DNA from: Histomonas meleagridis
Taxonomy: Eukaryota > Parabasalia > Tritrichomonadida > Dientamoebidae
Length of the DNA: 64,000 nucleotides
NCBI GenBank assembly: GCA_020186115.1
Contig: WSYJ01000075.1
Coordinates: forward strand, 310,001 to 374,000
Direction: 5' to 3'
The position numbers were made by a program, and so were the translations under genes. The notes beneath the pieces were generated by a model. That model saw only the letters and a program-made list of their open reading frames with translations. It made no database searches and was not told where the DNA came from. Positions within the stretch are counted from its first letter, which is position 1. Every line of letters starts with the position of its first letter. Below are positions 23,663 through 40,484 of the stretch, piece after piece.

Positions 23663-24049
23663 TTGAACACATAAACTTTTTAAATCATCTCATATAATAA
23701 TTTCTGCGAATAATTTGATATGATAAACATCCTTTCAATTCCTATCGCATCATTTGTTTTTTTGTTTATTTCTTCTTCTTTGGATAAATCTTTGATTTGT
23801 TGGAACACACCAATGTTTTGTAAATTGGAAATATTTAAAGATTGATTTTGATTAAAGTTTATTAACCTTCTTTTGGAATCTAGTTCATATTTCTCATTTT
23901 CATACATAATATATTTAACTTGAATATGAAACATAGGTCTACCTGTTCAAATTCCTCTCCTAAACATAAACGAAGTTTATTAACTGTTAGTGTGGGAGGC
24001 TATGTTTGACATTTTGGGGAATTCACTCTTAATTCGAATGTGTAAAATA

Positions 24050-24076
24050 CAGTGTTTCCAAAAACGATAGGTCAGT
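24050..24076 (+). repeat. Left terminal inverted repeat of the mariner unit
   Basis: 27 bases starting CAGTGTTTCC and ending ATAGGTCAGT, preceded by TA. Exact reverse complement of 28053-28079. Sequence just inside the two ends is unrelated, so the repeat stops sharply at 27 bp. Confidence 0.85.
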
Positions 24077-24711
24077 GAAGTGAATGTAAAACTATTATTT
24101 ATATCAAAAAAGAATAACTTTTTGAGAAACGGTGACTAAAAGATATCTTTTTCAGAAAGGTTTATTCATTAACGTGTATTCGAAAACTGTTTGAATAAAA
24201 CTTTTTGTGGTTATCGGCTTTTTTCATCAGAGATTTAACACTGGTGCTGAAACTGAACCAAAGCCAAAATAAAATATGTTGTCGTATTTGTTATGAATAG
24301 ACAATAATCATTCACAAAATTTCTCCCATCAAAGGAGCTAATGATTCAATCAAGATGATCGTAACCATTGCATGCTTGCCTTTCCTGTTTTGATTCTCTC
24401 ATTTTAATTAAAAAACTCTTTAACCAAAAAATTTAGTTAAAATGGATAATAATGAATTTTTTTAAAGTTGAATAAGATATCTTATTATGTATACCACCAT
24501 ATTAAACCATGAACATCTTAAAATGGGCAAAATATTATTATTATATTAATAGAAGTAAAAAAGATGATTTTTTTTATCCATTAACAATAAATTTTAAGCA
24601 AAAAAAATCACAAAGAGAATTGATGTTATTTACTCATCGAAAAGTTGAAATCATTAAAATTATTTATTGAAGTAATGATATGATTTTGAAAAGGTTACAC
24701 AGAAATGTTTA

Positions 24712-26019
24712 TTAGAATAAAATTAAAAATAATAATGAAAAAATACTTACGCCAAAAGCAAGCTGGACAGTTTTTGAAGTAGCTTCTGATGGAAAAGAAT
24801 TTGATGTAATATTTGAATTCGTGAATGAAATAGAATATATTATAGAATTTGTATATGTTGATGGTGAAGATGTATTTGCATTTGTAATTGTATTCGAATG
24901 TGTAAATGTGATCGAATGTGTAATTGTATTCGAATGTGTAAATGTGATCGAATGTGTAATTGTATTCGAATGTGTAAATGTGATCGAATGTGTAATTGTA
25001 TTCGAATGTGTAAATGTGATCGATTCAGGGATTGTGCGTGTTGGCCATGGACCACATTTTTCGATTGTGGATCCAATTGATACATTGAATTTACCGAATT
25101 TTGTTGAATTATAAGAATCTAATGTCATTACATATTTGAGAGGAGTTTCATCAAATGCTTCTTCATCAATTTTAGGTTCTGAGTGACCTTTATAATAAAC
25201 ACAAGTTAGAGATTTACATTCATAGAATGCATGATGATCAATTGAAACCAGATTTTCACCTATAATAACAACTGATAGATTATAACAAAATGCAAAAACT
25301 TCTTCATTGAGAATAGTTATTGAATTTGGAATTTCGATCTTTTTAAGAGATTTGCAAAAGCTGAATGCATCAGTCTCAATTGTAGTTATGTTATTTCCAA
25401 AGGTGACATCTGATAAATCAGAACAACGACAAAATGCATAACTTCCAATTGCAGTGAGTGAATTTGGTAATTTAATTTGCACAAGTGAACAAGATAAAAA
25501 TGCTCCCATGCCAATACTGGTCAGTTTTTCGTTAAAAATTACTTCCGATAAGTTGTGGCATTCAAAAAACGAACTATTTCCAATAATTGTCAGTGATTGA
25601 GGGAATTTAATTCTTCTAAGTGATGAACATTGCATAAATGAAAAATTATAAATTTTAATCAATTTTTCATTGAAAATAACTTTTGATAATTTAGTGCAGT
25701 TAAAAAATGCGCTTTCACCAACTATAGTAACATTTGGGCCAAAGGTAACATATGACAAATTTGTGCAACTAAAAAATGTATCATTACCAATATGAGATAA
25801 TGAATTTCCAATTTGAACAGTTGCTAGATTACCCCACCCTCTAAATGCATCGGATGGAGTTGAAGTAATATTATCACCGATAATCAAAGTTAATGTTTCT
25901 TTTTTGTAGGTAGATGCATTTTTAAAATCCTCCATGGTTTCTATTGTAAGTGTTTTTGTTTGATTATCAAATTTTCCAAATGTTGGTACTATTAGATAGT
26001 AAAATATCAGAGCAATCAT
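24712..26019 (-). CDS. BspA-like leucine-rich-repeat surface protein
   Basis: 435 residues. Signal peptide at 1-15 (MIALIFYYLIVPTFG). Residues about 60-300 hold about ten TpLRR/BspA repeats of about 23 residues (e.g. IGNDTFFSCTNLSYVTFGPNVTIVG). Residues about 325-385 are four copies of a Thr/Ser-rich 12-mer (SITFTHSNTITH), a likely stalk. A C-terminal span (LAFGVSIFSLLFLILF) ends without a cytoplasmic tail. BspA proteins form the largest surface family of trichomonads and are thought to mediate adhesion to host tissue or bacteria. The gene lies wholly inside the mariner-ended unit and has an Inr-like TCACTATTATTT about 25 bases upstream of the ATG (reverse strand). Confidence 0.9.
   Translation of the reverse strand: MIALIFYYLIVPTFGKFDNQTKTLTIETMEDFKNASTYKKETLTLIIGDNITSTPSDAFRGWGNLATVQIGNSLSHIGNDTFFSCTNLSYVTFGPNVTIVGESAFFNCTKLSKVIFNEKLIKIYNFSFMQCSSLRRIKFPQSLTIIGNSSFFECHNLSEVIFNEKLTSIGMGAFLSCSLVQIKLPNSLTAIGSYAFCRCSDLSDVTFGNNITTIETDAFSFCKSLKKIEIPNSITILNEEVFAFCYNLSVVIIGENLVSIDHHAFYECKSLTCVYYKGHSEPKIDEEAFDETPLKYVMTLDSYNSTKFGKFNVSIGSTIEKCGPWPTRTIPESITFTHSNTITHSITFTHSNTITHSITFTHSNTITHSITFTHSNTITNANTSSPSTYTNSIIYSISFTNSNITSNSFPSEATSKTVQLAFGVSIFSLLFLILF
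24892..25022. repeat. 36-bp tandem repeat coding the Thr-rich stalk
   Basis: About 3.6 nearly perfect copies of a 36-bp unit (ATTCGAATGTGTAAATGTG... on the plus strand), encoding the 12-residue SITFTHSNTITH repeat of the BspA protein. The unit lacks stops in several frames, which creates long spurious frames on both strands. Near identity between copies suggests recent slippage and possible length variation between strains. Confidence 0.9.
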
Positions 26020-27116
26020 TCTTAATACTACGAAAATAAAATAATAGTGAAAATGATTTGTGAGTCCAAAAAATAAGACACAAAAGACATAAGACGAATA
26101 CTTCCTTTCAAAAATTTCACTTCAAAAAAGAAATTACTGGTAAATATCTTCAAAATGAAAATAAATATTAAGATAAATTTGGAAGTTTTCTTTGATTTTA
26201 ATGATGTACATTATGATTATGTATTATCAATTAAGAAATAATACTGTTAATACTGTTAAACCGTATTTTAAAATCAAATAAAAGGAAAATAAACTATAAA
26301 GATTTTATTATTTATATGAATAAAATATTTCATAATATTATGACTTTGTTTCTTGTGACAAGTAAAAATAGTTTATTTTTTTTTGGCAAATATGTTTTTT
26401 TACAAATTAACTCATTTTTTCAAAAAATCAATGTATTAAAATTCAGATCAATTTCTCAACACATTATTTTAAAGTTCAATTTCTTTTTAAAAGATAAGAA
26501 TTGATTTTATGTATGAAGTATTTGGAAAAATAAAAATTAAAAAGATGGCAAAGGGATATATTTTTAATTTGAACTCATTAACGAAAAAATTGATGTTATA
26601 TGATATTATAAATGATTTGTGTTACGAATAAAATAGACATCAAACATCGGATTAAAAATATAAATTTTTAAAAATAATTATGTCATTCCCCATATGCTAT
26701 CGGTGAACGATAGATGGAAAAGGTTCGAATATTTCAAAATAATTTTCGATGAATTTATTACAGTTATAAAAAACTTTTTCAATACAATTTGAATTAATGA
26801 TTGGTAAAAAAAATTCTAAATATGAGTATAGAAAGATATAGAGAGTATCAGGTAATAAAGTATCAATGATGATATAGAAAATTCAATGTAAAAAATAATG
26901 TTTAATTTTTTTATCAACATAGAAATGATATTGATATACATATTATAACAAAATTGTCCGAGGTCTTCGAAGTCAATATTTTTCGCAAATTTGTTAATGA
27001 TACATTCATTAGCATCAAAAGTTGCATACACAAAATTATTGTATTTAATGCTACTCCAACAGACATATGTAGTAATAATGGTGTTAATAATTTCCTCGTT
27101 TTATGAAATCAGGCAT
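26020..27116. other. AT-rich interior of the mariner unit
   Basis: No convincing gene. At 26699-26717 is a palindrome-like ATCGGTGAACGATAGATGG, nearly the same as the 56191-56208 site. At about 27021-27110 is a segment similar to 30810-30890 (both encode a PTxICxNNGVN-like run); it abuts the point where the transposase frame is cut off, so it probably marks the recombination junction. Confidence 0.45.
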
Positions 27117-28025
27117 TCATTGACGCTTCATGTGAACAAAAACACATGAAAGACAGACCTGTTCAACCCTGTCTTTCATTATGGCCCACAAATTTTCGAT
27201 AAAGTTGAGGTCAGGGGAATTGACAGGCCAATTCTTCAATATATTGCATTCCTCTTCTATGTAATTATTCGTTAAACTGCTTTTATGTATTGATGCGCCA
27301 TCCTGCATCAAAACCCAATTTTTCTCACCATATATTTCATTCATTCCCGTTATTAGCTGAGATCTTTGAATACAATCCGAAACATATCGCTGAGCATTAA
27401 TTGTTCCTGTTAACGCGATTAAAGGTGTATGATAGTTATAAGAAATACCTCCAAATACCATGATTCATTGAGGGTATTTCTCTTGTGGAGAATATATGCA
27501 TTGGTCAATCTCTCCTTTTCTTCTCCAAAGCCACCTTCTATTCGGCCCGAGAATAAAGAGTGATTCGTCAGTAAACAATACAGATTTCCAATCTGTATTG
27601 TTTAAAAGATGATGATTACAAAATGATACCCGAGATTGTTTTTCCTTTTCAGACAATAGGAATGTTTTTCTCGGCGGAAGATAATTAAAATGGTTGTCGT
27701 GTAGTATATTGGCTACTAAACTTTTACTTATTGGTTAACCATTTTCAGTCACATTTTTCGCAATTCTACAAAGTCCAGCCCTTCTATCTTCTGTGACTAA
27801 TCTGATTACTTCTTCTTCAAGCTCTTTAGTTCGTTTCGCTGGTGCACCAATTTTGTTTTTTAATAAAAACATATTATCACCTTGTTCGATTTGCATTTTT
27901 ACTTTACGAATTATATCACATCCATAGCCAGTCAATTGGCGTATTTGAGAAATGTTTTTTTCATCATATAAATGATGAATGATTTCCATTCTGGCATTGA
28001 CCATGGACATCGGCATATGATTCAT
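27117..28025 (-). pseudogene. Tc1/mariner transposase, two in-frame stops and cut-off C-terminus
   Basis: One uninterrupted frame from the ATG at 28025, broken by a TAA at 27735-27737 and a TGA at 27462-27464, with no frameshift. The N-terminus has a helix-turn-helix (MEIIHHLYDEKNISQIRQLTG). The DDE triad is visible: FTDES (27567-27569), MQDGASIH, and SPDLNFIENLW, with 34 residues between the second Asp and the Glu, a DD34E spacing. The protein stops about 15 residues after the last motif, where relatives have about 50 more. Related to the Tvmar mariners of trichomonads. It cannot make a full protein unless stops are suppressed. Confidence 0.85.
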
Positions 28026-28028
28026 TGT

Positions 28029-28041
28029 GGTCACCCCATAA
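28029..28041 (+). promoter_or_regulatory. GGTCACCCCATAA box inside the mariner right end
   Basis: The same 13 bases as the box before the cullin gene (4321-4333). It lies four bases upstream of the transposase ATG (28025), but in reversed orientation relative to that gene. It may give the element a host-type promoter. Confidence 0.4.
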
Positions 28042-28052
28042 CCGTCGTATCG

Positions 28053-28079
28053 ACTGACCTATCGTTTTTGGAAACACTG
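28053..28079 (-). repeat. Right terminal inverted repeat of the mariner unit
   Basis: Exact reverse complement of 24050-24076, followed by TA at 28080-28081. Lies 27 bases upstream of the transposase start, normal for a mariner 5' end. Confidence 0.85.
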
Positions 28080-28323
28080 TATATAAAATTTGATCTTTTG
28101 ATCATCTTTTGCAAACTCATTCAATCATTACACCAATGTTATGTATCAAATTAAATATTTAATACTGATTTTACAATCATTTTAATCAATACAAAATCGC
28201 AAATGTAATTTGTTTAATAATTATTAGAAATATTTAAATTTTATTAATTTTAAATTTTTTTTACCAAAAACCATTTCGTTTTCAATAAACTTTATTTATG
28301 TATTTATAATCAAACTGTATACT

Positions 28324-38414: not shown

Positions 38415-40484
38415 TTATATATCTTTTGTTTCTTCTATCTTTTTATTGAACTTTACACATAAGATTGTACATACTAAAGCAAAAACTATAGCAAATATTA
38501 CAATTAATGCTATTGCCCAACCTTGTAAGCCGCCATTTGAATTACTTTCTTCGATTAAGGAACTCATTGGTTCTATTAATTGACCATTTTCTGTTGTATA
38601 AGTTGACGAACCGAAATTAACAGTAACACGAACACCATTACTAAAAACAGTTTGTTGTACCTTTAAATCATCAGTTAAATATATGTGATCAGTCATTTCT
38701 TGGTATGCAGTCATTTTTGAGACAACTTCAGCAATTTGATAAGAATTTTTAAGTTTATCTTTATAAGTCTCAAAAGCATTCTGGGTGATAGTATAAGTTG
38801 GAGGTGTTCCATAAAGTCGATTAAATAAATCTTTTTTATCCCATGTAGTTAGTATTTTTGGATTTGAATCACCAGTACTATAATAAGATATAACACAATC
38901 ATGATAAACAAGTTCGAAAAGTGGAACATTATAAATTTCATTTACACTTCTTTGATATTGCTCTTCTGTTGTTGCAAACATTGCATTACCCATTAAGCCC
39001 AAGAAATAATCACAATAAGGAACAGCAAAATCTCTTCCTTCTTCACTTCCAATGACAAGTTTTCCATGTTCATTTTCACGGAAGTATCTTAAAAGTTCAT
39101 TTCGATTTTGTTTCACTTCGCTTCTAACCATTGGATGATCATGATGATAACATTCGAAAAATAATGTTGCTGTTGAACCATCGATATATCTCGATTCAAA
39201 ATGATATTCATTATTCGAAAATTGTTTTTCGTAATCACTTTTCGCATATTTAAGATATGTTTTATCACAAATTGCATATACATCAATTCTTTGTGGTGAA
39301 TTTGATAAATTTGCAACATTGTCTAATGTTTCCATTTTACCTGAAGAATCAATAATTATATCATTTGGATATGCATAAGGCCAATTTGCATTCCAATCGA
39401 TCCATCCCTTATCACAAAACTCTCGATTTCCAGTATTTTGATATGAATCGTAAACATTTATTAATACATATGAATAATTTTCAAGTACTGTACCAAGATT
39501 TTCTCTTACTGAACCAAAATCTAAAATATGATCAAATCCTAAATCATATAATTGATCATATAAAGATATTCGACTAATATTCCATCTATCTCTGAAATTC
39601 ATAAGTGCTGAACCAATAAGTTTATCTATGTTTGGATTCTGTTTAACTTTCTCAGTAAATGGAACAACTAATCCTTTATCTTGTGCAATTTTTCGATAAC
39701 GTTTCGCCATTGCTACATGATTACCTTGCAAAAATATTAATCTCATTTTCCGTGTATATAAAAATTTCCCTTTTGATAACATATGTGTTATAAAGAAATG
39801 ATGATCTCCATTTAAACTTTTATCAATTGCTACATTACCATCGTCAGGCGTATCAATTACATACATTAATGAATTCTTTCCATTTGTTATGCCAAACCAC
39901 GGCATTGATAAGAAAAACATATAACTTTGAGTACTATCTTAACAACCTGATGTTGAACATATTTTATCGCCACTTAAATAATTTTTCCCTTCACCAAATG
40001 GTATAATCATTCGATCAACACCTTTAGTAGTTGCAAAATTCATTGGAAAAGTAGGCGGCTTAATAGTTGAATTAGGATCTGCATCATATGAAATATTTAA
40101 TTCATCTTCATTAAGATCTTAATTTAATTTGAAATTCGTTTTTTTGATTTTCTAAATTTATTGTTGCTGATGTTTGTGAATGTATTTCAACAGATCTAAT
40201 TGTTGAGGATCCCAGGTCAGTATTATTCCATGGCAAATAACTATTTGATAATTTATCAAATATTCTCATCCGTTGATTACTAAGATCAATCGATACATTA
40301 ACTTTATTACTTAGTGAACTGTTCCAAACCAAATTCTCTTGGAGTATCATCATATTTAAAATAATATGAACCATCTTCTCGCATCTCATATTCAATTTGA
40401 TCAGAACCATCATGTGGCCATGTAGAAAAGCTTTTCCTTATGGGAACTCTTTCTGATCTTGTAAGAAAAAAAGCATTTGTAAAA
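38415..40484 (-). pseudogene. Glycoside-hydrolase-like membrane protein, broken
   Basis: The 3' part (38415-39920, 501 codons) is open and looks like a TIM-barrel sugar hydrolase of the GH101/GH129/DUF5696 kind (MPWFGITNG..., AMAKRYRKIAQDKGL, LFELVYHDCVISYYSTGDSN), followed by a C-terminal span (WAIALIVIFAIVFALVCTIL) and a basic tail. Upstream the same protein continues through a TAA at 39939-39941, then a frameshift near 40120 and another near 40325, back to about 40484 (VPIRKSFSTWPHDGSDQIEY). The N-terminus and any signal peptide are missing. Family placement is by pattern, not search. Confidence 0.65.

What the first reader, a model, noticed from the sequence alone, without database searches (positions are those of the whole stretch)
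24048..28081. Mariner-ended 4-kb unit carrying an intact BspA-type surface gene
Perfect 27-bp inverted ends, each bordered by TA, enclose a whole surface LRR gene plus a broken Tc1/mariner transposase that lacks its C-terminal part. If the ends moved together, a cut-and-paste transposon has carried a host adhesion-type gene, a plausible way to spread the very large BspA family. I am not aware of such a cargo mariner in parabasalids.
Basis: partly seen in the sequence, partly recalled or inferred. Interest (0 to 1): 0.85.

Follow-up and report, generated by a model that had tools for sequence, protein, structure and literature searches.

The report
Surface gene copied into broken mariner
In a poultry parasite, one old mariner jumping gene has had part of its middle replaced by a copy of a chromosomal stretch with a whole surface-protein gene, apparently by sloppy DNA-break repair, so the gene now sits between transposon ends although nothing shows that the package ever jumped.

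Summary
In detail: perfect 27-bp inverted ends with TA enclose an open 435-aa BspA-type LRR gene and a broken Tc1/mariner transposase. The genome appears to be Histomonas meleagridis. The unit is ONE mariner: 24048-24170 and 27156-28081 are the two ends of a 1.2-kb element found elsewhere at 1195 and 1199 bp; about 150 bp of its interior, including the transposase C-terminus, are missing. In their place lie 2.97 kb (24169-27134) related to a segmentally duplicated BspA locus with five other copies, none with mariner ends. Related copies stay alike past the junctions, so these are not element ends. The right junction holds filler made of inverted copies of donor and mariner sequence; the left shows 2-bp microhomology. 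This looks like a repair scar: a break inside the mariner, perhaps interrupted gap repair after excision, patched with a BspA segment. One copy was found, without an empty site, and in a partial list no other BspA place lies near a transposase. Movement as a unit is possible but unshown; a role in spreading BspA genes is not supported.

The parts
24048..24076 (+). left TA plus 27-bp terminal inverted repeat (mariner 3' end)
   Evidence: inverted repeat I3; family of five pairs; flanks
24048..24170 (-). 3' end of one Tc1/mariner element (corresponds to the last 117 bp of the C2 copy, 88.6% in the local alignment; this non-coding end is diverged in all copies)
24169..24170 (.). left junction, 2-bp microhomology between mariner end and BspA-locus segment
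   Evidence: sequences side by side, read by eye
24169..27134 (.). 2.97-kb insert: related to BspA-locus segments on C82, C86, C120 (two) and C57
24712..26019 (-). open 435-codon BspA-type (LRR_5) gene with Ser/Thr-rich repeats and hydrophobic C-terminus
   Evidence: hydrophobic ends read by eye, not predicted with a tool
24870..25023 (.). 18/36-bp tandem repeat inside the gene; copy number differs between paralogues
27134..27150 (.). templated filler: 17 nt (the first base is also the last donor base) that are the inverted copy of BspA-locus sequence spanning the donor side of the junction; exact for C82, one mismatch for C86
   Evidence: longest inverted match of 2000 random 25-mers to the donor stretch: 11
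27146..27156 (.). templated filler: 11 nt that are the exact inverted copy of mariner sequence at 27169-27179, overlapping the previous filler by 5 nt
   Evidence: no random control was run for this match
27156..28081 (-). 5' part (926 bp) of the same Tc1/mariner element, about 96% identical to the C2 and C75 copies, with an interrupted transposase frame
28053..28081 (-). right TA plus 27-bp terminal inverted repeat (mariner 5' end)

Best explanation
A single Tc1/mariner element (about 1.2 kb) lay at a TA between two genes. A double-strand break opened inside it and about 150 bp of its interior were lost. The broken end was extended by short snap-back and template-switch copying, then about 3 kb of an ectopic BspA locus (by distance nearest to the C82/C86 type) was copied in, and the patch was joined to the mariner's other end through a 2-bp microhomology. 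The result is a mariner with intact ends whose middle is a duplicated whole BspA gene. Shown: one element, the missing interior, the ectopic relatives, the inverted filler, the microhomology. Inferred: the copying steps and their order, and that the break was the gap left by mariner excision with interrupted ('abortive') gap repair rather than an unrelated break (about 50:50). Not shown: that the 4-kb unit ever transposed.
For: Unit ends map collinearly to C2 mariner 1-926 and 1079-1195, in the orientation of one element. The insert matches five other loci, and C82 covers it in two pieces but for about 50-65 bp. C82, C86, C120a and C120b stay alike past the left junction, C82 and C86 past the right one, so neither junction is a transposon end there. 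Filler 27134-27150 inverts 17 nt of C82-type donor sequence and 27146-27156 inverts 11 nt of nearby mariner; 2000 random 25-mers reached 11 at most against the donor stretch. The window insert has its own changes (18 of 515, 15 of 596 and 22 of 574 ungapped sites; the last figure has no outgroup), so it is not a misplaced copy of one of the fetched loci. The same family has a deletion derivative (C30, C21) joined through a 7-bp microhomology, so microhomology joining of a broken interior has happened in this family.
Against: No reads were available, so an assembly join cannot be excluded by coverage. The immediate donor is not identified: C82 and C86 differ from the insert by about 3-4% in non-coding sequence, about as much as the window mariner differs from C2 and C75 (3.8 and 3.5%), so the event is old and steps could have happened in another order. 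The left non-coding part does not tie the window to one donor: its two informative sites only pair C82 with C86. Excision cannot be told from another kind of break. The only A-family polymerase found (C112, 611 codons, no helicase part in that frame) scores better against bacterial Pol I than against Pol theta, so the enzyme is not named.
Confidence: 0.8

Rival explanations
1. Cargo mariner (Pack-type): the BspA segment was captured inside the mariner elsewhere and the 4-kb unit then jumped to this TA as one piece, with transposase supplied in trans.
For: Both ends are perfect and bordered by TA. An internally deleted member of this family appears to have transposed: C30 and C21 share one deletion, but their likeness stops within about 10 bp of the element. 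Changes private to the window in the insert (33 of 1111) and in the mariner (26 of 926) are about equally many, P 0.89, so capture need not be younger than landing.
Against: One copy found and no second or empty site. No intact transposase of this family is evident: C75 and the window copy are interrupted, and the uninterrupted 338-codon C2 copy, like C75, departs at a conserved catalytic-motif position from 77 of the 79 homologues in which the motif was recognised.
Confidence: 0.15
2. Two separate mariner copies flank a BspA locus and only look like one unit.
For: Each end alone could come from a 1.2-kb copy; two full-size copies exist.
Against: The two pieces are complementary parts of one element, 926 + 117 of 1195 bp, with correct polarity, and the sequence next to the insert in the donors is not what lies beside the insert here.
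Confidence: 0.02
3. The 2.97-kb insert is itself a transposon that jumped into the mariner.
For: It is repeated in the genome and sits inside another element; it contains modules shared with other repeats.
Against: Its relatives continue in common beyond both junctions; by eye no target duplication or terminal repeat is seen at the junctions, and about 150 bp of target are missing.
Confidence: 0.03
4. Assembly artefact joining a mariner copy to a BspA locus.
For: The parts are repetitive and no reads were seen.
Against: No second full copy of either flank, private changes throughout the insert and two precise, different junctions.
Confidence: 0.03

Closest known systems
Tc1/mariner superfamily (Tc1-like; Tvmar1 of Trichomonas vaginalis as the best-studied parabasalid relative)
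   Same: TA at both ends, 27-bp inverted repeats, 1.2-kb full copy with one 338-codon transposase with DDE_3 and HTH_Tnp_Tc3_2
   Different: Only five members found here, none evidently active; the window copy holds 3 kb of foreign sequence. The Tvmar1 paper (PMC4021607; abstract and passages seen) treats insertion polymorphism and effects on nearby genes; no cargo copy appeared in the 12 passages seen. Tvmar1 itself was not compared by sequence.
Pack-TYPE elements, including Pack-Mariner of rice and maize (PMC8903248; passages seen)
   Same: Non-autonomous DNA transposon ends enclosing copied host coding sequence; Pack-Mariners are reported there as mostly low copy
   Different: Here a whole gene with its flanks, a single copy without evidence of transposition, and a repair scar; a section of that paper is headed as acquisition by mobilisation of neighbouring insertions.
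Transduplication in Turmoil-1 of C. elegans (PMC2572040; abstract seen)
   Same: Host coding sequence copied into a transposon, outside plants
   Different: Protein-coding sequences (one a fragment) within the inverted repeats, not a whole gene replacing the interior of a mariner.
Abortive gap repair, the process given for internal deletion of elements (PMC4678618, passages seen; Rubin and Levy 1997 seen only in its reference list, content recalled) and templated end joining (PMC4912351, passages seen)
   Same: Intact ends, lost interior, filler copied from nearby sequence in inverse orientation, microhomology
   Different: The patch is about 3 kb and carries a complete gene; a median insertion of 7 bp is reported in PMC4912351, so the long part needs longer copying from an ectopic template.

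Membership tests
Tc1/mariner | inverted terminal repeats bordered by TA | tested here: met
   five of five members found
Tc1/mariner | transposase with HTH and DDE domains in a full-length member | tested here: met
   C2 copy: DDE_3 2.8e-16 and HTH_Tnp_Tc3_2 2.1e-13
Tc1/mariner | Tc1-like catalytic spacing of 34 residues (definition recalled) | tested here: met
   counted by eye on the C2 translation; one of the bounding positions is itself changed in C2
Tc1/mariner | active transposition of this copy | not testable with these tools
   one assembly only; no second full copy of the flanks
Pack-type / transduplicating element | host coding sequence copied from elsewhere lies between the element's ends | tested here: met
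Pack-type / transduplicating element | the element with its cargo has transposed (two or more copies or an empty site) | tested here: inconclusive
   one copy found; no empty site visible; other strains not available
Abortive gap repair product | both ends kept, interior lost, microhomology or templated filler at the joins | tested here: met
Abortive gap repair product | the break was caused by excision of the element | not testable with these tools
   no trace distinguishes excision from another break
Composite transposon of two mariners | two element copies, one at each side | tested here: not met
   the pieces are complementary parts of one element
BspA-like LRR surface protein | LRR_5 repeats in an open frame | tested here: met
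   E 7.3e-90; surface location not tested

The most novel reading that the evidence does not exclude
The 4-kb unit is a parabasalid Pack-mariner: break repair loaded a complete surface-protein gene with its own flanking sequence into a mariner, and the loaded element then transposed (or could do so when a transposase was present), giving a cut-and-paste route for single BspA genes alongside segmental duplication.
Probability: 0.17. Interest if true: 0.65.

Novelty: new member of a known kind. Interest (0 to 1): 0.42.

Why it matters
It is a case, readable base by base, of a whole gene ending up between transposon ends, apparently through break repair, in a protist, with relatives of the donor still present and the templated filler still legible. 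It shows how a Pack-type element could start without any second transposon. It also speaks against mariner as the engine of BspA family growth in this parasite: the five other copies of this segment found here lack such ends, in a genome reported as 20% duplicated (PMC8529796, passages seen).

Tried and rejected
Two-mariner and second-transposon readings were tested and disfavoured. An empty paralogous site was sought with each flank on its own and not found; the left flank gave three short weak matches of 75-109 bp at 74-82%, the right flank none besides itself. Selection on the gene: four open paralogues of six loci were compared (C86 and C120a are interrupted and were left out); whole-gene dN/dS is 1.74-2.06 in the six pairs and 1.72-4.17 for the LRR part; only window against C82 (1.74) was tested, and it does not differ from 1 (P 0.26), so neither constraint nor diversification is shown. 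Dating by private changes did not order capture and landing (P 0.89 and 0.17). The identity figures printed at the end include a misaligned tail; one search is used instead. A search for a repair polymerase found one A-family enzyme of unclear kind. Literature: eight searches were answered, one of them empty. Terms for Trichomonas vaginalis with mariner and BspA gave 3 papers and terms for Histomonas meleagridis with genome, BspA and transposable elements gave 1; in the titles and abstract openings listed, and in the passages seen of the Histomonas paper (0 occurrences of 'mariner') and of the Tvmar1 paper, no mariner carrying a BspA gene was described.
Full report
What was checked. All three are in the sequence. 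The arms are 30 nt and 100% complementary, the gene is an open 435-codon frame with LRR_5 at E 7.3e-90, and the transposase lies in two pieces, one with a DDE_3 match at E 5.1e-12. A pattern search of the whole genome allowing 3 mismatches gave 10 matches, which form five facing pairs, and none for the pattern read backwards.

Where it is. The window is part of a 43,276,120-base, 121-contig assembly. Its contig C120 is 3,384,422 bases long, exactly the largest contig of the virulent Histomonas meleagridis assembly in Table 1 of PMC8529796 (passages seen). That table gives 187 contigs and 43,414,808 bases, so the assembly held here is slightly smaller, perhaps a filtered release.

The mariner family. 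The five end pairs enclose 1195 bp (C2), 1199 bp (C75), 487 bp (C30 and C21) and 4034 bp (window). C2 holds an uninterrupted 338-codon frame with DDE_3 and HTH_Tnp_Tc3_2, with Tc1-like spacing by my count; C75 is interrupted. At one conserved catalytic-motif position C2 and C75 depart from most homologues: of the 120 listed homologues 79 had the motif as I wrote it, 77 of them with the usual residue (the two translations). So no evidently active member was found. C30 and C21 share one internal deletion with a 7-bp microhomology at the join, and their likeness stops within about 10 bp of the element, so a non-autonomous member of this family appears to have transposed once.

The unit is one element. 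Unit 27156-28081 matches C2 1-926 (96.2%) and unit 24048-24170 matches the last 117 bp (88.6% in the local alignment); C2 927-1078 are missing. The lower identity of the left end is not a sign of a second element: that non-coding end differs by 8 to 21% among all five copies.

The insert. The 2.97 kb between them, 24169-27134, match loci on C82, C86, two places on C120, and C57; C82 covers the insert in two pieces but for about 50-65 bp, the others cover parts. In the C120b copy an open RabGAP-TBC gene ends just outside the left edge. C82, C86, C120a and C120b continue alike beyond the left junction, and C82 and C86 beyond the right one, so the edges of the insert are not edges of a repeat unit. 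None of the five loci shows the mariner ends. Non-coding sites differ by about 3-4% from C82 and C86 and 4-5% from the others. In the proximal right part four of nine informative sites group the window with C82 against C120a, C120b and C57, and the other five group it with C82 and C57 against the two C120 copies; in the left part the two informative sites only pair C82 with C86. The nearest donor type is therefore C82/C86, but the immediate donor is not known.

The junctions. At the left, mariner and donor share TT. At the right, donor sequence runs to 27134; the window then has an inverted copy of donor sequence around that point (17 nt, 27134-27150, counting the last donor base; exact for C82, one mismatch for C86), and 11 nt (27146-27156) that are the exact inverted copy of mariner 27169-27179, overlapping by 5 nt; then the mariner begins. 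Random 25-mers of the same composition reached at most 11 nt of inverted match to the donor stretch in 2000 trials; no such control was run for the mariner match. Such inverted, chained copies are like what snap-back and template-switch synthesis leave at end-joining sites (PMC4912351, passages seen). The genome has one A-family polymerase candidate, a 611-codon frame whose best solved relatives are bacterial Pol I, with Pol theta lower; I do not name the enzyme.

Order and movement. Private changes of the window are 18 of 515 and 15 of 596 in the insert against 26 of 926 in the mariner (an upper figure, since it has no outgroup; P 0.89) or 5 of 343 in its rooted part (P 0.17): capture and landing cannot be ordered. 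Neither flank has a second full copy, and the left one has only three short weak matches, so no empty site can be read here. The gene stayed open, but so did three of the five related copies (C82, C120b and C57, 395 to 400 codons), while C86 and C120a are broken, and for the one pair tested dN/dS does not differ from 1.

Does mariner spread BspA genes? The evidence is against it. The other five copies of this segment have no such ends, and of 99 LRR_5 places compared with 131 DDE_3 places only the window's own lies within 8.8 kb. That comparison is partial: 150 of 3722 LRR_5 candidates and 150 of 190 DDE_3 candidates were scored, and I picked the 99 places by hand (see Tried and rejected). PMC8529796 reports 20% of the genome as duplicated and 94 BspA-motif proteins (passages seen).

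Verdict. A real and unusual structure, best read as a mariner whose broken middle was patched with a copy of a BspA locus; kin to Pack-type elements in make-up, but without shown mobility.

Noticed in passing
window 26687-26954 and 26938-27111: Upstream part of the insert is built of two modules shared with other repeats: one with C48:14244, C109, C92 and C84 (84-88%), one with C24 and C72 (81-85%); within the roughly 770-870-bp stretches fetched, those loci resemble each other over about 320-680 bp.
   Followed up: partly
window 24870-25023: 18/36-bp tandem repeat coding the Ser/Thr-rich stretch; its copy number, and in C82 also one missing LRR unit, account for the length difference between the open BspA paralogues (435 against 395-400 aa).
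   Followed up: partly
L013 1068-1554 and L014 1094-1580 (C30, C21): 487-bp MITE-like derivatives of the same mariner with the same 7-bp microhomology deletion join at two different sites.
   Followed up: yes
L073 121-1956: The one A-family DNA polymerase match of the genome, 611 codons, scoring better against bacterial Pol I than Pol theta by sequence; a bacterial origin is a guess, not tested.
   Followed up: partly
window 38415-39920: 501-codon frame matching glycosyl hydrolase GH129/GH101-related families.
   Followed up: no
G000 C120:664380 and C120:686057: Two copies of the BspA segment lie about 20 kb apart on one contig, one interrupted and one open.
   Followed up: partly
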